Below the pieces are notes generated by a model. It was given only the letters and a program-made list of their open reading frames with translations. It searched no databases and was not told the origin of the DNA. A stretch of 64,000 bases of DNA from Desulfobacterium sp. (GTDB lineage Bacteria; Desulfobacterota; Desulfobacteria; Desulfobacterales; Desulfobacteraceae). A program made the position numbers and the translations under genes. Shown here piece after piece: positions 21,037-41,283 of the stretch; position 1 is the first letter of the stretch; each line of letters opens with the position of its first letter. The stretch is from the NCBI GenBank assembly GCA_016342325.1, contig JAEINR010000002.1, forward strand, positions 62,001-126,000, in the 5' to 3' direction.

Positions 21037-21194
21037 TGGGGCTGATGAACGTCAGTTCGACTACCTGGGGTTCCCCCCGGACGTCAGGCGGGGTTCGTAT
21101 TTCAATGGTACTCTGAACGTTGTTCATAAAATCGATACATGTCCGATCTCTTTGATACTAACTTTTAACGGTTATCAGTCAAATGCAAGGGGGT

Positions 21195-23423
21195 ATGATG
21201 GATTTTCGAAAAAAAATGAGCACTTTATTGGGATTCACCTTTTTAACCCTGCTCATTTTAACAACATCAGCCAGTGGCAACGCTGACACACAGTTCATGT
21301 TGGGGGCGGCAGTTCACGACATAACCGGTCCACCGGCCGAGGTCATGTTTGCCGGATATTGTGACTTCGATCAAGTCGGCCGGGGAATTTTCATGCGGCA
21401 GCGGGCCCGCACCATTATCATTCAAGACATTCAAACCGATAAAAGAGTGGTTCTTGTCACCGCAGACATTCCGATGATGTCCGACGGGGTGTACGCAACG
21501 GTTATCAACAAGTTGAGAAATCGCTTCGGGAATCTGTACACAGAGGCCAACGTGGTGATCTCTGCCACCCACACCCACAGCGGCCCCGGCGGCTATTTCA
21601 AAACATATGCCTTGAATATTTTTGCGGGAATGACCTTCCATGAAGATAATTTTGACACCATTGTTCAGGGCATTTACGCCTCCATCGTCCAGGCCCATGG
21701 GAATCTCACCCCCGGAGAAATCCGCATCAATTCCGGCTTTTTTTCACCGGAAAAAGGAACCCGGATCAACCGTCAGAGATCCCCGGAAGCTTACGTTCTC
21801 AACCGGGATGCCCCGGATTATCTGCTTGCCAGTGGTGCCTTTGACGACACGAATCGAAAAATGACGCAATTGAAACTGGTGGCTGGGGATGGTACGCCCA
21901 TGGGCATGTACAACTGGACCCCGGTTCATCCCAATGTATCCGGAAGTCACCTTTTTCTCATCAACGGGGATATCAACGGGTACGCATCCTACCTGTTTGA
22001 AAAATCCGGCACCCCCTTTACTTCGGCAAACAACGGTTTTATAGCCGCCTTTGCCCAGAACGACTGTGCAGACACTTCGGGTAATCTGCCTGAAGATGCC
22101 CTGTTGTTTACCGATATTCACAAAGATGGAGAGGAAGACTGGATTGCCGACGGCACACACGATTATGAACGCGTTGCCCTGCGGGCCAAAACCGTGGCCG
22201 GCCTTGCCGCCGAACTTTATGACGGGAACGGAACCGTACTCACGGGGAATATAGACTATCGGCAGATATTCGTCCCAATGAAGGATTTTCTGATTGATCC
22301 AGCCTACATTGATGCCGAGGACATCTATTATGCGGACAGACTTGGCGAGACCCAAGACAATTGCCGCCTGTGCGGGGGCTCAGCCGGGGTCGGTTTCTTT
22401 GCCGGATCCACCGAGGACGGCGACAGCGGCATGGTCAACGTCGGCGAGGGGAATACCCGGGATATCGATGATTATCGTATTGCCAGTTTGTCGGATCTGA
22501 TACAAGATCCTATTCCGGCGGTCACGAACTTGCTGATGCAAATGATCGTCCCAGGGGAAGCGCTATACGCCGAAATGGACTGCCAGATGGAAAAGCAAAT
22601 CGGTCTCAGTCTGGATGAATTGAACCGGATCATCCCCAATGGCAAGGCCTGGAATCTTAATGTACCGATTCAGATCATCCGGATTGGGGAACTTGCCATT
22701 CTAACCCTTCCGCTGGAGGTCTCGACCATGGCGGGAAGACGTCTGAAAGATGAGATCAAAAGTGTACTTCCAGACACTTCCTGGGTGGTCATCAACGCCA
22801 CCGCCAACAGCGATGCGAGATACCTGACAACCCGGGAAGAATATGCGGCACAGCAATATGAAGGGGGTGCCACTCTTCTGGGCCCCTATTCTCTCAATGC
22901 GGTCAGACAAATCGTCCATGAGCTGGCCGAAACATTCACTCCCTCGGTTGATTATCCTGACTATGCAGTGGGGTTTGAGGCTTTTGAACGTGATCTTGAG
23001 ACCCGGTCCATTTTCCAGATATCCGGAAATGTGATCTTTGACGACAAACCCCTGTTCAAACGGTTCGGGGATGTCATCGAGCAGCCACCCCCTTCCCGAA
23101 TCATCGGTGACATGGTGACAGCCCGCTTCCAGGGGGCCCATCCAAACAACAATATGGCCGTCGCCACATCCGAAAGCTACCTTGCCGTTGAAAAAAAAAT
23201 CGACGGCATCTGGAAACCCGTTCTCGATGACCATGATCCCTCTACCCGGTATCTCTGGCAAAGGGACGGCATTGCTAACTCAATTGTGACCATTGAATGG
23301 CATATTCCCATGGACACGGAACCGGGTACATACCGAATTCGTCATATGGGAAGATGGAAATCCGGATGGACCGGCCAAATCAAACGATACGAAGGCTTGA
23401 CCCGTAGTTTTGAGGTCTATTGA
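21195..23423 (+). CDS. Neutral/alkaline ceramidase-family hydrolase, secreted
   Basis: About 742 residues with an N-terminal signal peptide (hydrophobic run LLGFTFLTLLILTTSASG). The mature part opens AAVHDITGPPAEVMFAGYCD, then VVISATHTHSGPGGY, the zinc-binding HxHSGP motif of neutral ceramidases, and later AFAQNDCADTSGNLPED, matching the segment around the family's catalytic serine. The C-terminal immunoglobulin-like part is present (RIRHMGRWKSG). Known members split the amide of ceramide or related lipids outside the cytoplasm. AAGGGGG precedes an ATGATG pair; the start is 21195 or 21198. No operon partner is evident, and the next gene follows after 36 nt. Confidence 0.85.
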   Translation: MMDFRKKMSTLLGFTFLTLLILTTSASGNADTQFMLGAAVHDITGPPAEVMFAGYCDFDQVGRGIFMRQRARTIIIQDIQTDKRVVLVTADIPMMSDGVYATVINKLRNRFGNLYTEANVVISATHTHSGPGGYFKTYALNIFAGMTFHEDNFDTIVQGIYASIVQAHGNLTPGEIRINSGFFSPEKGTRINRQRSPEAYVLNRDAPDYLLASGAFDDTNRKMTQLKLVAGDGTPMGMYNWTPVHPNVSGSHLFLINGDINGYASYLFEKSGTPFTSANNGFIAAFAQNDCADTSGNLPEDALLFTDIHKDGEEDWIADGTHDYERVALRAKTVAGLAAELYDGNGTVLTGNIDYRQIFVPMKDFLIDPAYIDAEDIYYADRLGETQDNCRLCGGSAGVGFFAGSTEDGDSGMVNVGEGNTRDIDDYRIASLSDLIQDPIPAVTNLLMQMIVPGEALYAEMDCQMEKQIGLSLDELNRIIPNGKAWNLNVPIQIIRIGELAILTLPLEVSTMAGRRLKDEIKSVLPDTSWVVINATANSDARYLTTREEYAAQQYEGGATLLGPYSLNAVRQIVHELAETFTPSVDYPDYAVGFEAFERDLETRSIFQISGNVIFDDKPLFKRFGDVIEQPPPSRIIGDMVTARFQGAHPNNNMAVATSESYLAVEKKIDGIWKPVLDDHDPSTRYLWQRDGIANSIVTIEWHIPMDTEPGTYRIRHMGRWKSGWTGQIKRYEGLTRSFEVY

Positions 23424-25786: not shown

Positions 25787-26470
25787 TTAGGTGAGTTCGA
25801 ATACAATGGTGATCTCCATGGCAAGGGGTGGTTTGAACAGGTTTGCCGGGGGCGGGGCAAAGGGGGCGGCGTCCTTCAGGGCCCGCAGGGCGGCCCGGTC
25901 AAGGCTTTTGTGCCGTGCGTGGGTTACGATGGCGGCAGACAAGACCTTGCCCTGGGCCGTGATCACAAAGGAGATCGTCACCTTTCCCTCCATGTGCCGT
26001 GCCCGGGCCGTGTCAGGATAGCGCTTGCAGGTCTCGATCTTCAGCCGCAGCATGTCAAAATAATCTTTCTTGGTAAAGAAATCAGACGGTTTGGAGAGCC
26101 CCCAGTCTGCAGTTGAAAATGGGGTGGGGCAGGGCGTTCCCGGAAGTTGCGGCACCCCGATCCCCACCAGGGGGGTGTCCGGCCGGCTGGCATCCACAGG
26201 ATCGATCTTGACCGGGGGAAGCACCATCTTTTGAACCCGTGTTTCCTGGGCCGTGGCCACAGTCGGCGGGGTGTGCCTGGCCCTGGGCCTTGGTATCTCC
26301 CGCCCAACAGGCCTTGAATTCTCCTTGAGGCCCAGCTCGATATAGGTCCGGGCACCAAAACCGACACGTCCGGACAGATGGAGGAGGATGGCCAGGTGGA
26401 TCGCCATGGAGACCAGCAACACGCCTTGGAAAATCGTAAAGCGAGGTTTTTTAAGGGTTGAATGGGCCAT
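25787..26470 (-). CDS. tonB: Energy transducer TonB
   Basis: About 227 residues. One N-terminal membrane anchor (IFQGVLLVSMAIHLAILLHL), a periplasmic linker rich in Pro/Arg, then a TonB C-terminal domain (RYPDTARARHMEGKVTISF, ending FKPPLAMEITIVFEL). It carries proton-motive energy from ExbB/ExbD to outer-membrane receptors. The start at 26470 follows the exbD stop directly (4-nt gap), giving an exbB-exbD-tonB operon. No TonB-dependent receptor is within the window, so the client is unknown; a B12 receptor elsewhere is one possibility given the btu genes at 36-39 kb. Confidence 0.9.
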   Translation of the reverse strand: MAHSTLKKPRFTIFQGVLLVSMAIHLAILLHLSGRVGFGARTYIELGLKENSRPVGREIPRPRARHTPPTVATAQETRVQKMVLPPVKIDPVDASRPDTPLVGIGVPQLPGTPCPTPFSTADWGLSKPSDFFTKKDYFDMLRLKIETCKRYPDTARARHMEGKVTISFVITAQGKVLSAAIVTHARHKSLDRAALRALKDAAPFAPPPANLFKPPLAMEITIVFELT

Positions 26471-26883: not shown

Positions 26884-27498
26884 TCACGCTCCCGGGGGGG
26901 TGGTGACGGCTTTGAGAAAGGTGACCGCCCCGTTCTGAAGTCTTGCCTCATAGGTGTCGATCCTGGCCACAAGGTAGGAATGGGCCACCATGCAGGGAAG
27001 CGCCACACCAATGCCCAGGGCCGTGGTGAGCATGGCCTCCCAGATGCCGCCGGCAAGCACGGACGCATTGACATTTCCCCCCAGCTGCTGGATCACCATA
27101 AAGGCCTTGATCATTCCCACCACCGTGCCCAGAAGCCCCAGGAGCGGAGCGATGTTGCCGATGGTGGCCAGGGTCTGGAGGTAGGCGGAAAGCGTTCTCA
27201 CTTCGCCTTCGATGGCGTTGACGATCACCGTCTCCAGGGTCGCCCGCTCCCTGTCCTTCACCTCAATGGCCTGGGTCAGCATCCGGCCCATGGGAGAGTC
27301 GTTGTTGGCGGACAGCTCCCTTGCCTCGCCAGTCTTCTCTTTGGCAATCAGGGCTGAAACGGTTTCGGCAAGGTTGCCGCCCCTGGATCTCATCCTGGCA
27401 AAGCTGATGATTCTTTCGAAAAAAATGGCCAGGGCAATAACCGAACACAGGAGGATGGGCACCACGAGAAATCCTCCCTTTGATAAAATTTCAAACAT
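26884..27498 (-). CDS. exbB: MotA/TolQ/ExbB proton channel protein
   Basis: 204 residues with three membrane segments: PILLCSVIALAIFFERII near the N-terminus, then APLLGLLGTVVGMIKAFMVI and a third beginning GIWEAMLTTALGIGVALPCM. GLLGTVVGM and the TTALG turn are family hallmarks. AAGGAG precedes the ATG. First gene of exbB-exbD-tonB. The gap to the upstream repeat-protein gene is 111 nt, and a separate promoter was not recognised there. Confidence 0.93.
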   Translation of the reverse strand: MFEILSKGGFLVVPILLCSVIALAIFFERIISFARMRSRGGNLAETVSALIAKEKTGEARELSANNDSPMGRMLTQAIEVKDRERATLETVIVNAIEGEVRTLSAYLQTLATIGNIAPLLGLLGTVVGMIKAFMVIQQLGGNVNASVLAGGIWEAMLTTALGIGVALPCMVAHSYLVARIDTYEARLQNGAVTFLKAVTTPPGA

Positions 27499-27609
27499 AG
27501 ATATCTCCTTTATCAGTGAATTAAACTCTTCTTGTTAAAATTGCCGGCAATTCAAGGCCGGGAGCAGTGGGCCATGGGTCGTTGCCCGTTACCCGGGAGC
27601 AGGAAGCTG

Positions 27610-29448
27610 TCACCCGGCCATCTGCTCTTCCTGGAAGTCGACGATATCGGGATGGCCGTCAAAGTCGAGGTCCCGTTCCTTTTTGACCATGACCTCGGAT
27701 GCGTCGTAGCGCTCCCAGAGATCGGGTTTGCCGTCCCCATTGGTATCCTCCTCCACCGTGACCACATGGCCCTGGTCATAGAAGAACCAGGTGTCCGTCA
27801 GATCATCGCCGTTGGTGTCCTTTTCCGCCCGTATGGGATTTTCCTCCGGGTCATAGAACCACACCAGGGTCAATCGGCCGGCAATTCCTTCCTGTTCCTC
27901 GCTTTTCACCATCTTGCCCTTGGGGTCGTAGTGGACCCTGAAGTCTATTTTTGCGTCGCTGTCTTCATCCATCTCCTTGATCCTGAGCACCCCGTCCTTA
28001 TAAAAGAATCGTGCGTCAACGCTCTTGTCGCAATACAGGTTCTGCTCGGTGATCCAGGACCAGCCAGGGGCGTCAAAGCGCTGGGCAATGTCAAAGCAGC
28101 CGTCTCCGTCGCTGTCCTTTTTCAGGTTGGCTTGCTTGCCGTTCTTGTACCGGATCTTGAGGTCCACCCGTCCGTCATGGTTTTCATCCTTTTCCATGCG
28201 GGTGATCTGATTGGCACTGTAATATTGCCAGGTGTCGATGCGGCCGTTGAGGTTGCCATCGCTTTCCACCCTTTTTCGCTCCTCGTTTTTGTCAAAGAAA
28301 ATGGTTGTATCCGGTGTGCCGTCTTTGTTGTCATCCCGGGTCTGGCGGCTGAGCTTGCCGGCCGTGAAATAGGAGACGGTCTCCAGCAGGCTGTCTTCGT
28401 CGCTGTCATACTCGACCCGGATCGGCACCCCTTTTTCAAAGAACCTGAGCCGGTCGATCTTTCCCGAGTAGCGGGTGTCCTCCTTGATGTTTTTTACAAG
28501 TCCCTGGGGGTCGAAACAGGTGAACCGGTCCAGGGTGGTGTCGTGGTTGGTGTCCCTTTCCTGGGTGGCTGGGATGCCGTTTCTAAAGGTCGTAAAGGTG
28601 TCAAACCGAGCGTCAAGGTTGGTGTCCTTTTTCTGGTGTATGGGCGCCATGGACGCGAAGGTGGTGACCGAGTCCATGGTTCCATCGGTGTTGATGTCCT
28701 TTTCTTGGCGTGCGATCTCTCCTTTGACATAGGTGCGGAAGGTTTCCATGATGGTGTCCCTGTCAAGGTCATGGGAGCTGGTTTTGGGAAGCCCTTCGCC
28801 ATCATAGTGCACCACTGAATCCAGATGACCGTCCTCGTCGTCATCCACCCGCTGCTCAACGGGCTTGCCCTTGGCAAAGGTTTGCCACACATTGACCGTG
28901 CCGTTGTCGTTGGTGTCCTTGGTGGAACGCTTTACCTGGCCCTGGTCAAAATAATAGACAAGGTCGAACTCCCCGGTGGCGGATGTGTCTTTTCTCATCT
29001 CCATAATGGCGCCAGTGCCATCAAACAGGGAGAGCTGAACCCGGCTGCCATCCGGTGCGTGCCGGGTCTGCCGGGTCCGCTTCTCATTTTCGAAATAGTC
29101 CTTGCAGTCCATGGCTCCGTCAAGGTCCGTGTCCCGTTCAATCCGGATCAGCTTTCCTTCCCCATAGTACTGGTGTCTGTCCATGGCACCGTCATGGTTG
29201 GTGTCTATTTCCATGCGGAGGATGGTGTCGTTGGCATCAAACACGGCGACCTGGTCTGTTCTGTTGTCGTCATTGGTGTCTTTTTCCACCCGTCGTTCCT
29301 GGCTGGCTGCCGTCGCCTGTTCCGCTTTTGCCTTCTGTGTCGCCCTAGGCTCTTGTTTCGCTATAGGCTCCCGTTTCGCTATAGGCTCCTGGGCCTGGGC
29401 AAGGGAGGTTGAAACGATCATCACCACGATCAAAAATAGCTTCTTCAT
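27610..29448 (-). CDS. Secreted Asp-rich repeat protein (about 23 EF-hand-like 24-residue repeats)
   Basis: About 612 residues. A signal peptide (MKKLFLIVVMIVSTSLAQA) is followed by a short low-complexity part with EPIAK repeats. The rest is a tandem array of about 23 units of 24-25 residues, each close to D-T-N-x-D-G-x-x-D then an aromatic-rich strand ending G-x-x-x-R-x-E/K. The acidic loop resembles calcium loops of EF-hand, dockerin and thrombospondin type 3 repeats, so calcium binding and an elongated shape are likely but inferred. I take the Met at 29448 because the signal peptide begins there. It lies just upstream of exbB on the same strand, so it may be a cell-surface or periplasmic partner of the Ton system. 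No catalytic domain seen. Confidence 0.85.
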   Translation of the reverse strand: MKKLFLIVVMIVSTSLAQAQEPIAKREPIAKQEPRATQKAKAEQATAASQERRVEKDTNDDNRTDQVAVFDANDTILRMEIDTNHDGAMDRHQYYGEGKLIRIERDTDLDGAMDCKDYFENEKRTRQTRHAPDGSRVQLSLFDGTGAIMEMRKDTSATGEFDLVYYFDQGQVKRSTKDTNDNGTVNVWQTFAKGKPVEQRVDDDEDGHLDSVVHYDGEGLPKTSSHDLDRDTIMETFRTYVKGEIARQEKDINTDGTMDSVTTFASMAPIHQKKDTNLDARFDTFTTFRNGIPATQERDTNHDTTLDRFTCFDPQGLVKNIKEDTRYSGKIDRLRFFEKGVPIRVEYDSDEDSLLETVSYFTAGKLSRQTRDDNKDGTPDTTIFFDKNEERKRVESDGNLNGRIDTWQYYSANQITRMEKDENHDGRVDLKIRYKNGKQANLKKDSDGDGCFDIAQRFDAPGWSWITEQNLYCDKSVDARFFYKDGVLRIKEMDEDSDAKIDFRVHYDPKGKMVKSEEQEGIAGRLTLVWFYDPEENPIRAEKDTNGDDLTDTWFFYDQGHVVTVEEDTNGDGKPDLWERYDASEVMVKKERDLDFDGHPDIVDFQEEQMAG

Positions 29449-29580: not shown

Positions 29581-29694
29581 GGATCGTTCAATCGTTTTTT
29601 TACTAGTTCTGGGGACCGCCTTCTGGCGATCAATAATCAACTCTCATATGAAATTGATCAGATGGTGTCAACCCTTTTTATCGCCTTGAGCCGG

Positions 29695-35548: not shown

Positions 35549-35577
35549 TTGACATTTAGGTGCAGGCGTTTTATTCT
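35549..35577 (+). promoter_or_regulatory. Sigma70-type promoter of the cobalamin operon
   Basis: Perfect TTGACA (35549-35554), 17-nt spacer, TATTCT (35572-35577), placed just upstream of the riboswitch so the transcript would start at its 5' end. Confidence 0.65.
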
Positions 35578-35587
35578 TTGGCAAAAT

Positions 35588-35765
35588 TTCAGGTGCTATT
35601 GTAGAAAAGAGGGAATCCTGTGAGAATCAGGAACGGACCCGCCGCTGTAACCGGGGATGAACGCTGCTTAATGTCACTGTCCAATGGGATGGGAAGATGC
35701 AGCAAGTAAAATGATCCGGGAGTCAGAAAACCTGCCTGAACAGAATGATCCTTTGTGCCTGCGCG
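35588..35765 (+). promoter_or_regulatory. Cobalamin (adenosylcobalamin) riboswitch
   Basis: The conserved string order of the class is present: GGTGC-type 5' helix, GAATCCTGTGAGAATCAGGA, GCCGCTGTAACCGGG, the B12-box region around GTCACTGTCC with GGGAAGATGC, then GAGTCAGAAAACCTGCCTG. It sits directly upstream of B12 transport and synthesis genes and is followed by an intrinsic terminator at 35811-35848, so ligand binding probably ends transcription. Boundaries are approximate. Confidence 0.92.
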
Positions 35766-36058: not shown

Positions 36059-37108
36059 ATGAGTATACCGGTTAACGCCATATCAAGAAAGAGGACAGGG
36101 TTTCTGGTGCTCCTGTTCTCTTTTCTCCTTGTCGGGATGATTCTTGTTTCCGCATCCATGGGGTATATGCAGATTGGGCCCGCGGAGATCGTGGGCATCG
36201 TCATGGGTGAGTTGGGGGGTGGTGGCGTTTGTGTGGAAAGGCTGGATGCCACCTTGAGGACCATCGTGATGGAGGTCCGCCTGCCAAGGATTCTTACCTG
36301 TGCAGCCGTGGGAGGGGCGCTTTCGATTTCGGGCGTCCTCTTCCAGGGAATACTTCTTAATCCCCTTGCGGATCCGTACACCCTTGGGGTGTCGGCCGGT
36401 GCCGCCTTCGGTGCCTGTGTCGCCATTGTGTTGAGTCTTGGCTCAACCTTTGTTCCGGTTCCGTTGTTCGCTTTTGTCGGGGCCTGTTTGACCCTGTTGT
36501 TGGTTATGTTCCTCTCCTATACAGGTAACAACAGGACCTCGGCCTTTTCTTCCAATAATTTGATCCTTTCGGGCATCATTGTTGCCGCTATCCTGTCGGC
36601 GGGCATTAGTTTTCTGAAGTACGTTGCCGACGAGCAGGTCTCTGTCATCATCTTCTGGCTCATGGGCAGCTTTGCTTCAAAGACCTGGGGCGACGTGGTT
36701 CTGACCCTGGCTTTCCTCATCGGCGGGCTTGGGATATCCCTGTTTTTTGCCCGGGACCTCAATCTGGTCTCCCTTGGGGAGCGTTCCGCCGAAAGTCTTG
36801 GGGTAGACACCGGGCGGGTGACCCTGATTCTTCTCATCACAGGCTCCCTGCTGGCCGCGGTTTCGGTCTCGGTTTCCGGGATCATCGGGTTTGTGGGTCT
36901 CCTGGTGCCCCACATGGTGCGGTTGGTCTCAGGACCGGACAATCGCAAGCTCATTCCCTTGTCCATGCTCATGGGCGCCATTCTGCTTCTGGGAGCGGAT
37001 ACCATCACCCGGGCCGTTCTTCCCCATGAGATTCCCATTGGTGTGCTCACCGCCCTTATGGGTGGGCCGGTCTTCTGCTGGATCTTCAAGCGGAGCCAGC
37101 GCAACTAG
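36059..37108 (+). CDS. btuC: FecCD-family ABC transporter permease, vitamin B12/corrinoid type
   Basis: 349 residues with about ten hydrophobic segments, a BtuC/FecCD permease. RLPRILTCAAVGGALSISG, GILLNPLADPYTLGVSAGAA and GFVGLLVPHMVRLVSGPDNR are family signatures, the last contacting the ATPase. It forms the inner-membrane channel for corrinoid import. First gene after the cobalamin riboswitch; the B12 substrate is inferred from that. A GAGGAAT site precedes the ATG. Confidence 0.9.
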   Translation: MSIPVNAISRKRTGFLVLLFSFLLVGMILVSASMGYMQIGPAEIVGIVMGELGGGGVCVERLDATLRTIVMEVRLPRILTCAAVGGALSISGVLFQGILLNPLADPYTLGVSAGAAFGACVAIVLSLGSTFVPVPLFAFVGACLTLLLVMFLSYTGNNRTSAFSSNNLILSGIIVAAILSAGISFLKYVADEQVSVIIFWLMGSFASKTWGDVVLTLAFLIGGLGISLFFARDLNLVSLGERSAESLGVDTGRVTLILLITGSLLAAVSVSVSGIIGFVGLLVPHMVRLVSGPDNRKLIPLSMLMGAILLLGADTITRAVLPHEIPIGVLTALMGGPVFCWIFKRSQRN

Positions 37109-37116
37109 GCGCAGCC

Positions 37117-37902
37117 ATGGAAATGTCCATCCGAAACCTCAGCTTCTCCTATGACAAAGTCCCGGTGCTCCAGGGGGTTGACCTTGATTTCAAACGGGGA
37201 CGATTCTATTCGATCCTCGGCCCCAACGGCTGCGGCAAGACCACCCTGCTCGATCTTCTCATCCGCCATAGAACGCCTGACACCGGCACCATCACCCTGG
37301 ACACCAGGGCCTTGGGTCGCTTATCCAGAAAAGAGATTGCACAAACCATCTCCCTGGTTTCCCAGAACTACAACATTAATTTTCCCTTTACCGTGAAAGA
37401 GGTGGTGATGATGGGCCGTCATCCCTATATCTCTCGATTTTCCACCCCGGGCGCCGAGGATATCCGGATCGTGGACCAGGTGATGGAGCGAACGGGCATC
37501 AACGGTTTCAGGAACCGGCGGATCACTGAATTGAGCGGCGGGGAGCGGCAGCGCTGTGTGGTTGCCAGGGCCCTTTGCCAAGATACCCCCCTGCTTTTCC
37601 TGGATGAGGCTTTCTCCAGTATGGATATCAGTCACACCCTGCGCCTTTTGGCCATGGTGAAAAAGGAAGTGGCGCGATCCAACAAGATCGTTGTGTCGGT
37701 GTTCCATGATATCAATCTTGCTTCTGCCTGGTCTGACAGCCTCGTGTTCATGAAGGGGGGCAGGGTGGCCGCCGCCGGTGACACCCGTGAGGTACTGACC
37801 GAGGCGGTGCTGGGGGAGGTGTTTGAGGTGGCGTCCAAGGTGGCGTTCAACGAATATGCCGGAGCCAAACAAGCCTATTTCAAGGCAGAGGGCCATGGAT
37901 AA
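37117..37902 (+). CDS. btuD: ABC transporter ATP-binding protein, corrinoid import
   Basis: 261 residues. Walker A GPNGCGKTT near residue 36, Q-loop SLVSQNYNINFPF, signature LSGGERQRCVVARAL near 138 and Walker B LLFLDEAFSSMD. Powers the BtuC permease. It starts 8 nt after btuC and its end overlaps the btuF start by 8 nt. Confidence 0.93.
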   Translation: MEMSIRNLSFSYDKVPVLQGVDLDFKRGRFYSILGPNGCGKTTLLDLLIRHRTPDTGTITLDTRALGRLSRKEIAQTISLVSQNYNINFPFTVKEVVMMGRHPYISRFSTPGAEDIRIVDQVMERTGINGFRNRRITELSGGERQRCVVARALCQDTPLLFLDEAFSSMDISHTLRLLAMVKKEVARSNKIVVSVFHDINLASAWSDSLVFMKGGRVAAAGDTREVLTEAVLGEVFEVASKVAFNEYAGAKQAYFKAEGHG

Positions 37903-38869
37903 AATAAGGAAAGAGGTGGCATCAATGTTTCCATTGAAAGCAAGGACCATTGTGGTTGGGATTGCCGGAGCGAGTCTTGTGGTGATGCTCTCTTTTTTAT
38001 CCACGGCGGCTGCGGGCTTGTCCTTGGTTGACCAGGCCGGGAGGACGATCACGGTTGATAAACCCTTTTCCCGGATCATCTCCCTCTACGGGGCCCATAC
38101 GGAGAATTTGCGCTTTTTGGGGCTGGACCGGGAGATCATCGGCGTGGCCCGGAGCGACTCCCACGACAAGCGGTTTTCATCAAAGCCCTGGTTCTCCTAC
38201 CATGATGACCCGGAAAAATTCCTCGGGGCACGGCCAGACCTTGTGCTGGTCCGGCCCATGATCGAACTGGGGTACCCGGGGCTGATTAAACGGCTTGAGC
38301 GTTCGGGCATCACCGTGGCCTCGTTACAGCCTGCCACGGTGGAGGAAATGTACGATTACTGGATCGCCCTTGGCACGCTTTCAGGAAGGGAAACCCGGGC
38401 GGCCAAGATGGTGGCTGATTTTCAACGCCAGGTGGCTTTTTATCGCTCCCTCACCCAGGGGGTGACATCAAAGAAACGGGTTTATTTTGAGGCGATCCAT
38501 TCCAGGATGAAGACCTTTACCCCGGGATCCATGGCCTTGTTTGCCCTGGAGGCCGCAGGGGGTATCAACGTTGCCGGGGATGCCTCCTCCTCCAGGGGGA
38601 CAAACATCGGCAACTACGGTAAGGAGCGGATTCTCTCCCACGGCAAAGAGATCGATGTGTTCCTTGCCCAGCAGGGGGTGATGAACCAGGTCTCCCTTGG
38701 GATGATTAAAGACGAACCGGGTTTTGGCATTATCAAAGCGGTCCGTAACAACCAGGTCTATCTCATTGATGAGATGATCGTGTCACGGCCCGGATTCAGG
38801 CTGTTACAGGGAATTAGAACCATAGGGGAGATCCTCTATCCCGAACTGTTCGGCAACCTTGCCGAATGA
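37895..38869 (+). CDS. btuF: Periplasmic corrinoid-binding protein of the ABC transporter
   Basis: About 324 residues. An N-terminal signal sequence or anchor (ARTIVVGIAGASLVVMLSFL) precedes a class III binding-protein fold: GRTITVDKPFSRIISLYGAH, ARPDLVLVRP and a long rigid helix. It captures the ligand outside the membrane and hands it to BtuC. I choose the Met at 37895 because GAGGG lies close upstream and the 8-nt overlap with btuD is usual; an earlier frame start at 37823 lies inside btuD. Confidence 0.88.
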   Translation: MDKIRKEVASMFPLKARTIVVGIAGASLVVMLSFLSTAAAGLSLVDQAGRTITVDKPFSRIISLYGAHTENLRFLGLDREIIGVARSDSHDKRFSSKPWFSYHDDPEKFLGARPDLVLVRPMIELGYPGLIKRLERSGITVASLQPATVEEMYDYWIALGTLSGRETRAAKMVADFQRQVAFYRSLTQGVTSKKRVYFEAIHSRMKTFTPGSMALFALEAAGGINVAGDASSSRGTNIGNYGKERILSHGKEIDVFLAQQGVMNQVSLGMIKDEPGFGIIKAVRNNQVYLIDEMIVSRPGFRLLQGIRTIGEILYPELFGNLAE

Positions 38870-38913
38870 GTCGGGATCTGGAGCTCAACCCACAACCAAG
38901 GAAACAAAATATA

Positions 38914-39621
38914 ATGAAAACAGTTGGCACACTTTTCGGCATTGGCGTAGGTCCCGGGGACCCGGAACTTTTAACCCTCAAGGCCGTGCGCAAGATCAAC
39001 CAGGCCGATGTGATCTTTACTGCGGCATCCACCAAAAACGCCTACAGCCTAGCCGTGGAGATCGCCCGTCCCCATATTGCAGAGCAGGCAACCATCCGTT
39101 CCCTCTCCTTTACCATGAGTAAAGACAAGGTCAAGGCCCGGGAGGCGTGGGACAGCAATGCCCGAACCATCGCAGAGGTCCTGGAGCAGGGAAAGAATGC
39201 GGCCTTCCTCACCCTGGGGGACCCCATGACCTATTCCACCTACGGCTATGTGCTCAAGAGTCTGACATCGGTGATGCCCCATGCCGTCATTGAAACCATT
39301 CCAGGGATCACCTCATTCCATGCGGCAGCAGCACGCATCAACCGAACCCTTGTTGAGGGGGAAGAGTCCTTGCTGATCTCCTCCGGCGCCTATGGCGGCG
39401 AGCCCTTGAGGAAGAGCATGGATGGGGTGGAAAATGTGGTATTGCTCAAGGCCTATAAAAACACCGTGGACATCAATACCGCTCTCAAGGGGGCAGGGCT
39501 CTTTGAAAACGGGGTCGCCATTTCCAAATGCGGCCGGGAAGGGGAAGAGATCATCGATAACCTGGGCGATCTTGAGACCAGGGATCCCAACTACTGGACC
39601 CTGATCCTGGCCGGAAAATGA
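38914..39621 (+). CDS. cobI: Precorrin-2 / cobalt-factor II C20-methyltransferase
   Basis: About 235 residues, a tetrapyrrole methylase. FGIGVGPGDPELLTLKAV is the N-terminal SAM-binding turn, TLGDPMTYSTYGYVL the second motif and ETIPGITSFHAAAARIN the third, with features of the C20 enzyme. Methylates C20 from SAM. AAGGAAA lies before the ATG at 38914; an earlier ATG at 38866 overlaps the btuF stop and is possible. Confidence 0.92.
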   Translation: MKTVGTLFGIGVGPGDPELLTLKAVRKINQADVIFTAASTKNAYSLAVEIARPHIAEQATIRSLSFTMSKDKVKAREAWDSNARTIAEVLEQGKNAAFLTLGDPMTYSTYGYVLKSLTSVMPHAVIETIPGITSFHAAAARINRTLVEGEESLLISSGAYGGEPLRKSMDGVENVVLLKAYKNTVDINTALKGAGLFENGVAISKCGREGEEIIDNLGDLETRDPNYWTLILAGK

Positions 39622-39649: not shown

Positions 39650-41059
39650 ATGATGGGGGTTGATATCATCGGCATGGGATTGAGTGGGGAGGACCTCACC
39701 AACAGACATGAACAGATCATCCGCAGGGCCGATCTCCTGGTGGGGGGAATCCGCCATCTTGAGCAGTTCCAGGATCTTGCCATTGAGACCCTTCCCATAT
39801 CAAAGGATATTGCCCTTGTGGTTGAAACCGTAAGGGAAAGAATGGGGTCTGCGCGCATCGTGGTGCTGGCATCCGGGGATCCGCTCTTTTTCGGCATCGG
39901 GTCCACACTGGTCCGGGCCCTTGGAAAAGAGGCGGTGACCTTCCACCCCAATGTCTCCTCCCTTGCGGCGGCCTTTAGCGCCATTAAGGAGCCCTGGCAG
40001 GACGCCCGGCTTATTAGTCTCCATGGGCGGGAGGTGCCGGATCTGGTGTCGATATTGAAGACCCATTCCAGGATCGGCATTCTCACGGACCACACACGGA
40101 CGCCGGGTTGGATCGCACAGGTTCTCCTGGACAACCCCATACCCGGGGTCGGTATGTGGGTGCTGGAACGCCTCGGTACTAAAGAGCAGGCCATCACCTG
40201 GCATGATGACATGGCCAAGGTGGCTGCCATGGGGTTTGCCACGCCCAATGTGGTGGTGGTGAAACAGAGTTTTGCCACTAGGGAGGAGGACTCCCGGATG
40301 TCTGGAAGTACGGACTCCTTGGGTGAAACGTTGAACCAGGCACCGGTCACCGGGGAGAAGATGTCCCAAGTGCACGGAACCAGGGACCGCACCGCCCCGG
40401 CTCAGGGGGAGGATTCCTCTACCATATGGCCGGGAATGCCGGATGAGCGTTTTGTCCATGAAAAGGGGCTGATCACCAAGGCCGAGGTGAGGAGCATTTC
40501 CCTGTCAAAGCTCAAGCTTGTATCCCACCATTTCACGGTCTGGGATCTGGGTGCAGGGTCCGGGTCCGTGGGTATTGAGGTGTCTGCCTTTGTCCACAAG
40601 GGACGGGTGGTTGCCGTGGAGAAGAATGAAAACAGGCTCGCCGATATACGGGCAAATGTTGCCCGGTTCGGGGTTACCAACCTTGACGTGGTCCATGGAA
40701 ACAGTCTTGGGGTGATGGATCAGTTGCCTGATCCGGACAGGATCTTCATTGGCGGCGGAGGCCAGGATCTTTTGGCGATCATCCAAGAAGCCGGAAAACG
40801 GCTTAAACCCAGCGGGGTGATGGTGGTCAACACGGTGCTTCTCCAGAATATGGAGCCGGTGCTGGCGCTTTTGAAGAAGATGGGATTCAGGTCCCAGTTG
40901 ATCCAGGTCCAGGTATCAAAATCAACGTCCATGCCGGTTGGTGAACGCCTAGAAGCGTTGAATCCGGTGTGGGTGATCTCAGGTGAAAAACCCAAACGGA
41001 CCAACGAACAGCCTCAAAAGCATAAAAGCGTTGAACCCGGTGGGGGTGATCCCAGGTGA
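39650..41059 (+). CDS. cobL: Precorrin-6Y C5,15-methyltransferase (CbiE-CbiT fusion), with altered C-terminus
   Basis: 469 residues. N-terminal CbiE methylase (VDIIGMGLSGEDLTNRH, ASGDPLFFGIGSTL) and C-terminal CbiT part with a Rossmann SAM site (VWDLGAGSGSVGIEVSAF, FIGGGGQDLL). It methylates C5 and C15 and decarboxylates the C12 acetate. Two oddities: an unusually long polar linker between the domains (about residues 208-262, rich in Ser/Thr/Glu/Gly), and a C-terminus that runs into a 73-bp tandem repeat. Copy 1 encodes the natural ending through VWVISGEKPK; copy 2 is read in another frame and stops at a TGA. The fifth, partial copy still encodes a plausible old ending, VWVIPDEKF. The core should be active. 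Confidence 0.9.
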   Translation: MMGVDIIGMGLSGEDLTNRHEQIIRRADLLVGGIRHLEQFQDLAIETLPISKDIALVVETVRERMGSARIVVLASGDPLFFGIGSTLVRALGKEAVTFHPNVSSLAAAFSAIKEPWQDARLISLHGREVPDLVSILKTHSRIGILTDHTRTPGWIAQVLLDNPIPGVGMWVLERLGTKEQAITWHDDMAKVAAMGFATPNVVVVKQSFATREEDSRMSGSTDSLGETLNQAPVTGEKMSQVHGTRDRTAPAQGEDSSTIWPGMPDERFVHEKGLITKAEVRSISLSKLKLVSHHFTVWDLGAGSGSVGIEVSAFVHKGRVVAVEKNENRLADIRANVARFGVTNLDVVHGNSLGVMDQLPDPDRIFIGGGGQDLLAIIQEAGKRLKPSGVMVVNTVLLQNMEPVLALLKKMGFRSQLIQVQVSKSTSMPVGERLEALNPVWVISGEKPKRTNEQPQKHKSVEPGGGDPR

Positions 41060-41283
41060 AAAACCCAAACGGACCAACGATCAGCCTCAAAAGCATAAAA
41101 GCGTTGAACCCGGTGGGGGTGATCCCAGGTGAAAAACCCAAACGGACCAACGAACAGCCTCAAAAGCATAAAAGCGTTGAACCCGGTGGGGGTGATCCCA
41201 GGTGAAAAACCCAAACGGACCAACGATCAGCCTCAAAAGAATAAAAGCGTTGAACCCGGTGTGGGTGATCCCAGATGAAAAAT
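40955..41283. repeat. 73-bp tandem repeat (4 copies plus a partial fifth) at the 3' end of cobL
   Basis: Units begin at 40955, 41028, 41101, 41174 and 41247 (partial). Each full unit is 73 bp and starts GCGTTGAACCCGGTG (copy 1 GCGTTGAATCCGGTG). The copies differ at only a few bases, e.g. CGAACAG/CGATCAG alternates between copies 1/3 and 2/4. Because 73 is not a multiple of three, each copy shifts the frame. The high identity points to recent expansion by slippage or unequal exchange. Confidence 0.97.

What the first reader, a model, noticed from the sequence alone, without database searches (positions are those of the whole stretch)
27610..29448. Secreted protein with about 23 Asp-rich repeats beside exbB-exbD-tonB
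The 24-25 residue units (D-T-N-x-D-G-x-x-D core) form nearly the whole mature protein. The array seems to bind many calcium ions and lies in the same direction just upstream of the Ton motor genes, which lack any receptor gene here. It could be a surface or periplasmic device powered by or anchored near the Ton system.
Basis: partly seen in the sequence, partly recalled or inferred. Interest (0 to 1): 0.5.

Follow-up and report, generated by a model that had tools for sequence, protein, structure and literature searches.

The report
Frozen 23-repeat partner of TonB motors
A secreted protein made of 23 probably calcium-binding repeats is inherited, in many relatives of the sulfate-reducing bacterium Desulfobacterium, as a near-constant neighbour of one type of TonB motor, which suggests an undescribed extra part of the machine that powers nutrient uptake through the outer membrane.

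Summary
On the minus strand, 29448-27610 encodes a 612-aa exported protein that is 23 units of 24-25 residues; 18 units keep all four Dx[DN]xDGxxD ligand positions. It lies 111 bp before exbB-exbD-tonB, same strand. Outside the class, 17 of 24 phylum genomes with a match show the pair. The array is not a drifting tandem repeat: numbered units are mostly orthologous, the same five units lack the motif in nearly every species, and 32 of 69 intact rows have 23 units, none more. AlphaFold2 gives a confident all-beta model, nearest to single-layer OspA and MORN sheets. A TonB-dependent receptor lies within 8 kb in 24 of 36 long loci. Best reading: a periplasmic Ca2+-stiffened rod, an accessory of this Ton motor, in the seat that DUF3450/TtpC/TPR proteins hold in Vibrio-type TonB2 systems. 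Metal binding, contact with the motor and periplasm spanning are inferred.

The parts
27610..29448 (-). Repeat protein gene, 612 aa, ATG at 29448; exported protein of 23 units
   Evidence: the open frame also has a TTG start at 29640, which would bury the signal peptide
29392..29448 (-). Signal peptide, residues 1-19, probable cleavage AQA^QE (read by eye; no predictor was run)
   Evidence: sequence; helix 3-16 in the model; lipobox-like sequence in 1 of 70 rows
29281..29391 (-). Linker, residues 20-56, mostly low confidence, with short EPIAK repeats
   Evidence: mostly gaps in the other 16 rows of the alignment
27613..29280 (-). Array of 23 units of 24/25 residues; 18 with all four Dx[DN]xDGxxD ligand positions; units 4, 5, 12, 18, 20 without
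   Evidence: fold
27703..27747 (-). Most conserved unit, 22: residues 568-582 DTNGDGKPDLWERYD; D568, D572, D576, W578, E579, Y581, D582 invariant in 17 aligned proteins
27499..27609 (-). Spacer between repeat gene and exbB; no terminator-like site on this strand
   Evidence: fold z-score 0.72
26884..27498 (-). exbB, 204 aa, short form
   Evidence: PF01618 107.7 bits
26475..26873 (-). exbD, 132 aa
   Evidence: PF02472 99 bits
25787..26530 (-). tonB ORF, 247 aa from TTG; an ATG at 26470 would give 227 aa
   Evidence: PF03544 58.9 bits, TIGR01352 63.9 bits

Best explanation
The repeat protein is a dedicated periplasmic accessory of one subfamily of ExbB-ExbD-TonB motor in Desulfobacterota. It is exported by an ordinary signal peptide and folds into one long single-layer antiparallel beta-sheet of about 46 strands, two per unit; acidic turns of 18 of the 23 units hold Ca2+ and stiffen the sheet (inferred). 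The rod stands beside the Ton motor and guides or holds TonB, or joins the motor to the receptor or the peptidoglycan, so that force reaches TonB-dependent receptors; the conserved C-terminal units, above all unit 22, are the likely docking end (inferred). Shown: sequence, array architecture, conserved gene unit. Predicted: fold. Inferred: metal, location, partner contact, mechanical role.
For: Linkage: 49 of 58 ExbB-subfamily places in 192 class genomes have the repeat gene directly upstream, same strand; in 58 genomes (own included), 18 of the 21 with this ExbB also have a repeat match. Apart from recurring receptor and ABC genes the flanks differ, and in G046 the order is repeat-tonB-exbB-exbD, so the unit outlives rearrangement. 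Outside the class, 17 of 24 phylum genomes with a match keep the pair. Uptake context: a TonB-dependent receptor within 8 kb in 24 of 36 long loci, a FecCD permease in 13 of 36; G006 and G028 have one receptor match each (E up to 1e-10) and it lies within 6 kb of exbB (G006 is 78% complete and its repeat gene is cut by the contig end). Constraint: same-numbered units match best in 15-22 of 23 in 13 comparisons, mean identity 0.47 to the same unit elsewhere against 0.26 between units of the window array; 32 of 69 intact rows have 23 units and none more. Fold: pLDDT 87.9; OspA Z 10.8, junctophilin Z 8.1, SET7/9 Z 7.3. Precedent: TtpB2 (DUF3450), TtpC2 and TtpD2 (TPR) are essential parts of the Vibrio vulnificus TonB2 system (PMC6957404, abstract and passages); the window's own genome has such a DUF3450, long ExbB, ExbB, ExbD, TonB, TPR cluster on C148 without the repeat protein.
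Against: This ExbB type exists without the repeat gene: G015, G026, G031 (one genus) and G184 have none upstream, and G204 has none in the 1 kb held. G145 has a full-length repeat protein with no exbB in 5.2 kb downstream and no ExbB of this subfamily in the genome. Repeat number falls to about 9 in distant relatives. Repeat length and TonB length do not correlate (Spearman -0.09, n=39, with several ORFs picked wrongly). 12 of 36 long loci, the window's among them, show no receptor within 8 kb. Beyond the class the repeat protein is uncommon: 26 of 297 phylum genomes match. Physical contact, metal and location were not tested.
Confidence: 0.5

Rival explanations
1. Metal buffer or shuttle: the acidic array binds the metal brought in by the linked receptor (Fe, Ni, Co or another) and hands it to a FecBCD-type binding protein, as lanmodulin may do beside a Ton/ABC system for lanthanides (recalled).
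For: Four ligand positions kept in 252 of 361 unit-by-species cells; 13 of 36 loci have a FecCD permease within 8 kb; weak phmmer and profile matches to lanmodulin, E 0.065 and 0.084.
Against: The protein follows the motor rather than a given ABC system: 23 of 36 loci show no FecCD within 8 kb. The lanmodulin matches are near chance level and the model has no helices outside the signal peptide. A buffer would not need fixed unit order and five fixed motif-less units.
Confidence: 0.2
2. The unit is a Tol-like or envelope-tethering machine rather than an uptake motor; the repeat protein takes the place of a TolB/Pal-type periplasmic partner.
For: NCBIfam scores TolQ and TolR above ExbB and ExbD (96.5 against 70.9; 61.8 against 50.5 bits), all below cut-off.
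Against: The third protein has a TonB C-terminal domain (PF03544, TIGR01352), and receptors recur beside the unit; TolB and Pal were not searched for.
Confidence: 0.1
3. A secreted or surface Ca2+-dependent adhesin-like protein that shares regulation with the Ton genes but not their work.
For: All 17 aligned proteins match NF050087 'Lsa25.6 family adhesin' at E up to 0.001.
Against: The window protein scores 56 bits against a cut-off of 150; lipobox-like sequence in 1 of 70 rows; co-occurrence with one ExbB subfamily is tighter than I would expect from co-regulation alone.
Confidence: 0.12

Closest known systems
Vibrio TonB2-type system with TtpB (DUF3450), TtpC and TtpD (TPR) (PMC6957404)
   Same: A Ton motor with extra, co-encoded components; the same genome also carries this type
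   Different: Here ExbB is short (204 aa) and I saw no DUF3450, long-ExbB or TPR gene beside it; the one extra protein is an all-beta acidic repeat protein
Lsa25.6 family (NF050087, Leptospira)
   Same: Similar D-rich repeat; 17 of 17 aligned proteins match weakly
   Different: Window protein scores 56 of 150 bits needed; 612 aa against a 196-position model; no lipobox
MORN_2 / MORN single-layer beta-sheets and OspA
   Same: Antiparallel sheet, about 24-residue two-strand unit; VIA-align Z 7-11; 3 of 17 proteins match PF07661 at E up to 0.1
   Different: Carries Dx[DN]xDG turns; the window protein itself has no MORN_2 match
Dx[DN]xDG calcium motif proteins (PMC3123361; start of abstract and passages seen)
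   Same: Same linear motif, followed by an acidic residue at position 9
   Different: Here the context is a tandem beta-sheet array; the multi-copy case in the passages I saw is a beta-propeller
Rhs/YD-repeat shells, teneurins
   Same: First rows of Foldseek, best E 2.1e-14
   Different: TM-scores about 0.1 and rmsd about 40 A: local strand pattern, no shell shown

Membership tests
ExbB-ExbD-TonB (Ton) energy transduction system | MotA/TolQ/ExbB channel protein | tested here: met
   PF01618, 107.7 bits against cut-off 22.9
ExbB-ExbD-TonB (Ton) energy transduction system | ExbD/TolR protein | tested here: met
   PF02472, 99 bits against 25.4
ExbB-ExbD-TonB (Ton) energy transduction system | TonB C-terminal domain | tested here: met
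   PF03544 58.9 bits against 24.6; TIGR01352 63.9 against 27.1
ExbB of NCBIfam equivalog TIGR02797, or TolQ of TIGR02796 | Score over the curated cut-off | tested here: not met
   70.9 against 206.2; 96.5 against 221: Ton/Tol class, not a canonical equivalog
Vibrio TonB2-type Ton system | DUF3450, long TtpC-type ExbB and TPR genes in the cluster | tested here: not met
   The scanned genes beside the window unit match none of these; present in the same genome on C148 and, for DUF3450, long ExbB and TPR, on C130
Lsa25.6 family (NF050087) | Score over the curated cut-off | tested here: not met
   56 against 150 bits
EF-hand | Helix-loop-helix around the calcium loop | tested here: not met
   Predicted model has no helix outside the signal peptide, pLDDT 87.9
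MORN_2 (PF07661) | Sequence profile match | tested here: not met
   No match for the window protein at E up to 0.1; 3 of 17 relatives match
MORN / OspA-like single-layer beta-sheet | Single-layer antiparallel sheet | tested here: inconclusive
   Z up to 10.8 to OspA at rmsd 5.8-16 A; Z 7-8 to MORN proteins; a shared arrangement, not homology
Rhs/YD-repeat proteins | Closed beta shell of YD repeats | tested here: inconclusive
   Foldseek E 2.1e-14 but TM about 0.1
Dx[DN]xDG calcium-binding proteins | Motif conserved | tested here: met
   18 of 23 units; 252 of 361 unit-by-species cells keep the four ligand positions
Dx[DN]xDG calcium-binding proteins | Calcium bound | not testable with these tools
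   needs biochemistry

The most novel reading that the evidence does not exclude
The protein is a molecular ruler of the Ton motor: 46 strands at a nominal 0.48 nm per strand (recalled) give about 22 nm, near the periplasm width usually quoted for Gram-negative cells (recalled), so one Ca2+-stiffened rod of 23 units, a number not exceeded in any locus measured, could reach from motor to outer membrane and guide or brace TonB. That would be a Ton architecture unlike the three-protein or Ttp-type systems.
Probability: 0.22. Interest if true: 0.8.

Novelty: new variant of a known kind. Interest (0 to 1): 0.58.

Why it matters
How TonB carries force across the periplasm is still argued (recalled). 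A co-encoded, probably elongated protein tied to one class of Ton motor across many families of a phylum gives a new handle: its removal, its shortening by whole units, or loss of the acidic turns are clean tests of whether Ton motors need a scaffold. It also shows a long repeat array that evolution has largely frozen in number and order, which is unusual for tandem repeats.

Tried and rejected
Accidental neighbour: rejected. Young expanding tandem repeat: rejected; no DNA-level tandem array and unit-by-unit orthology. EF-hand or lanmodulin relative: matches at E 0.057-0.084 only, and an all-beta model. Correlation of repeat length with TonB length: none; the automatic ORF picking failed for several loci, so this is weak. 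Longer TonB where the repeat gene is missing: three genomes of one genus have 295-309 aa TonB, but G184 and G204 have 250 and 224 aa, so dropped. Cobalamin riboswitch control of the unit: of 20 sources scanned, only the window (35574-35753) and L033 (3983-4165) have one, both ahead of separate B12-type genes; the other 18 have none at gathering score. Substrate of the linked receptors: neighbours differ (DUF364, PBP_like-HTH_17, FecBCD-type; CobN-like by eye), so none was assigned. Own-genome paralogue: none.

Rows against the pairing. Class genomes with only a repeat match (8): G042 and G127 (other proteins with a 24-residue repeat), G144 (27-residue period), G153, G165, G176, G189 (pieces at contig ends) and G145 (full length, unpaired). 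ExbB places without an adjacent repeat gene (9): G199 and G141 end at the contig edge; G091 has about 0.8 kb before the edge; G204 about 1 kb; G132 has the repeat gene 7.7 kb away with opposite-strand genes between; G184, G015, G026, G031 lack it. Gaps are between match ends, not gene ends. Phylum genomes outside the class (24 with a match): 17 paired; G398 has a 33% identical ExbB 1.1 kb away; G489 shows exbD/tonB only; G361 ends at the contig edge; G404, G237, G324, G239 unpaired.

Unit counts are estimates from motif spacing. I gave 71 loci picked by hand from those held, which favours high scorers; one (L183) was not a repeat locus and was put in by mistake; 70 gave a row, 69 intact, one locus being there twice (L126/L177). 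37 of 69 came out below 23, three of them at 22.6-22.9. One search took 21 loci left out: 18 gave an estimate, the highest 23.1. The 36 loci were also picked by hand; receptors were sought by tblastn, so absences are not firm. The 14 proteins were picked among 23-unit ones.

Print: in nine searches of the open-access library (listings) I saw no description of this pairing; subscription papers are not in that library. Passages only were seen of PMC11247825 (cable-bacteria nickel; nothing on such a protein in them), PMC12204202 (no hit for 'Desulfobacter' or 'calcium'), PMC8824477 and PMC5736177.

Full report
What is there. The finding lies on the minus strand: ATG at 29448, stop ending at 27610, 612 residues. 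A signal peptide read by eye (MKKLFLIVVMIVSTSLAQA) and a short linker lead into 23 units of 24 or 25 residues that fill the rest of the protein. Autocorrelation peaks at lag 24 with 0.191, against a maximum of 0.114 in 1000 shuffles. 18 of 23 units keep D1, [DN]3, [DN]5 and D, E or N at 9; units 4, 5, 12, 18 and 20 do not. The gene is followed after 111 bp by exbB, exbD and tonB on the same strand, with no terminator-like site on that strand in the spacer. The genome has no second copy at E up to 0.01. The nearest named relative is a Desulfobacterium MAG (L031, best segment 80% identical), a genus NCBI places in Desulfobacterales, phylum Thermodesulfobacteriota (Desulfobacterota in GTDB, recalled).

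Is the neighbour accidental? In 58 genomes (own included), 19 match the repeat protein and 21 hold the same ExbB subfamily (197 bits or more; the next ExbB matches are at 39% identity or less); 18 hold both. In 192 genomes of the class, 51 hold both, 8 only a repeat match, 6 only the ExbB, 127 neither (Fisher p 5e-31, which ignores shared descent). Of 58 ExbB places, 49 have the repeat gene immediately upstream on the same strand, median gap 69 bp between matches, range 16-1137. All exceptions are told in Tried and rejected. In 297 genomes spread over the phylum, 26 match; of the 24 outside the class, 17 have a same-strand ExbB directly downstream. Apart from recurring receptor and ABC genes, flanking genes differ between genomes, and in G046 the order is repeat-tonB-exbB-exbD, so the association survives rearrangement.

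The uptake context. In 24 of 36 long loci a TonB-dependent receptor lies within 8 kb of exbB, and in 13 of 36 a FecCD permease does; Pfam confirms two receptors, a Peripla_BP_2 protein, a DUF364 protein, a PBP_like-HTH_17 protein and others as neighbours. The window's own locus has no receptor nearby, but its genome has at least 24 receptor matches and five TonB C-terminal matches, so a missing local receptor is no puzzle. On C148 the same genome has a six-gene cluster DUF3450, long ExbB, ExbB, ExbD, TonB, TPR by Pfam; on C130 a receptor, DUF3450, long ExbB and TPR by Pfam, with ORFs that look like exbB and exbD and the TonB match between them. This is the layout of the Vibrio vulnificus TonB2 system, in which TtpB2, TtpC2 and TtpD2 are each needed (PMC6957404, abstract and passages). 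Neither cluster has the repeat protein. The repeat protein therefore occupies the position of an accessory, but of a different build.

The array is largely frozen. Between the window protein and 13 other 23-unit proteins, 15 to 22 of 23 units match best the same-numbered unit, and the pattern of 24- and 25-residue units is nearly identical; mean identity is 0.47 to the orthologous unit and 0.26 between units of the window array. Across 17 aligned proteins the four ligand positions hold in 252 of 361 unit-by-species cells, and the units without them are the same ones in nearly every species: units 4, 5, 18, 20 have them in 0 of 17, unit 12 in 1 of 17. Of 70 rows measured, 69 were intact; 32 have 23 units, 37 come out lower, down to about 9, none higher; 18 further estimates do not exceed 23 either. 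The sample is not random, the counts are estimates from spacing, and the ceiling may only mean that diverged units can be lost but not duplicated.

The fold. AlphaFold2 on the 17-row alignment gives mean pLDDT 87.9 and pTM 0.61, 46 strands, two per unit, no helix outside the signal peptide. Foldseek's first rows are Rhs proteins and teneurins with TM about 0.1; VIA-align, a second look at Foldseek's rows, puts OspA first (Z 10.8; rmsd 5.8-16 A), then TarM/SdgB (Z about 9), junctophilin (Z 8.1) and SET7/9 (Z 7.3); that these are single-layer or MORN sheets is recalled. 3 of 17 relatives match MORN_2 and 13 of 17 DUF6802 at E up to 0.1.

Mechanism. Most likely the protein is a periplasmic rod, stiffened by Ca2+ in 18 turns, that works with this Ton motor as a scaffold, guide or tether for TonB; the C-terminal units, with invariant D568, D572, D576, W578, E579, Y581 and D582, are the best candidate for docking. 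Unit architecture and linkage are shown; the fold is predicted; export, calcium, location, contact and role are inferred. A strict ruler is less likely, since shorter arrays exist. PMC5736177 (passages) shows for E. coli that lengthening Lpp widens the periplasm and breaks signalling, and that a longer RcsF restores it; this makes a length test meaningful, no more.

Novelty. No Pfam family reaches its cut-off on the window protein, the NCBIfam match is far below cut-off, and nine searches of the open-access library showed no account of the pairing. It is a new variant of a known kind: a Ton system with an undescribed accessory.

Noticed in passing
40953-41282: 73-bp tandem array, 4.5 copies at 96% match, over the 3' end of the gene at 39650-41059, which looks like a corrin-biosynthesis CbiE/CbiT gene by eye; the period is not a multiple of three.
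   Followed up: no
35574-35753 and 36059-39621: Cobalamin riboswitch (105 bits) ahead of FecCD permease, ABC ATPase, binding protein and tetrapyrrole methylase genes.
   Followed up: partly
21183-23423: Neutral/alkaline ceramidase gene (PF04734 and PF17048) in a relative of Desulfobacterium.
   Followed up: no
L190 3099-10226: In G132 a block of six opposite-strand ORFs (kinase-like, PP2C-like, vWA-like by eye) lies between the repeat gene and exbB, as if inserted.
   Followed up: no
L048 (G039): The repeat gene is broken by several stops while exbB stays open, and tonB looks shortened: a decaying copy.
   Followed up: partly
L049, L135, L167: Related 24-residue D-rich repeats follow a different N-terminal part in proteins with no ExbB found nearby.
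   Followed up: partly
L149 (G145): Full-length repeat protein, 685-aa frame, with no exbB within 5.2 kb downstream; its downstream neighbours look like lgt and cysS by eye.
   Followed up: partly
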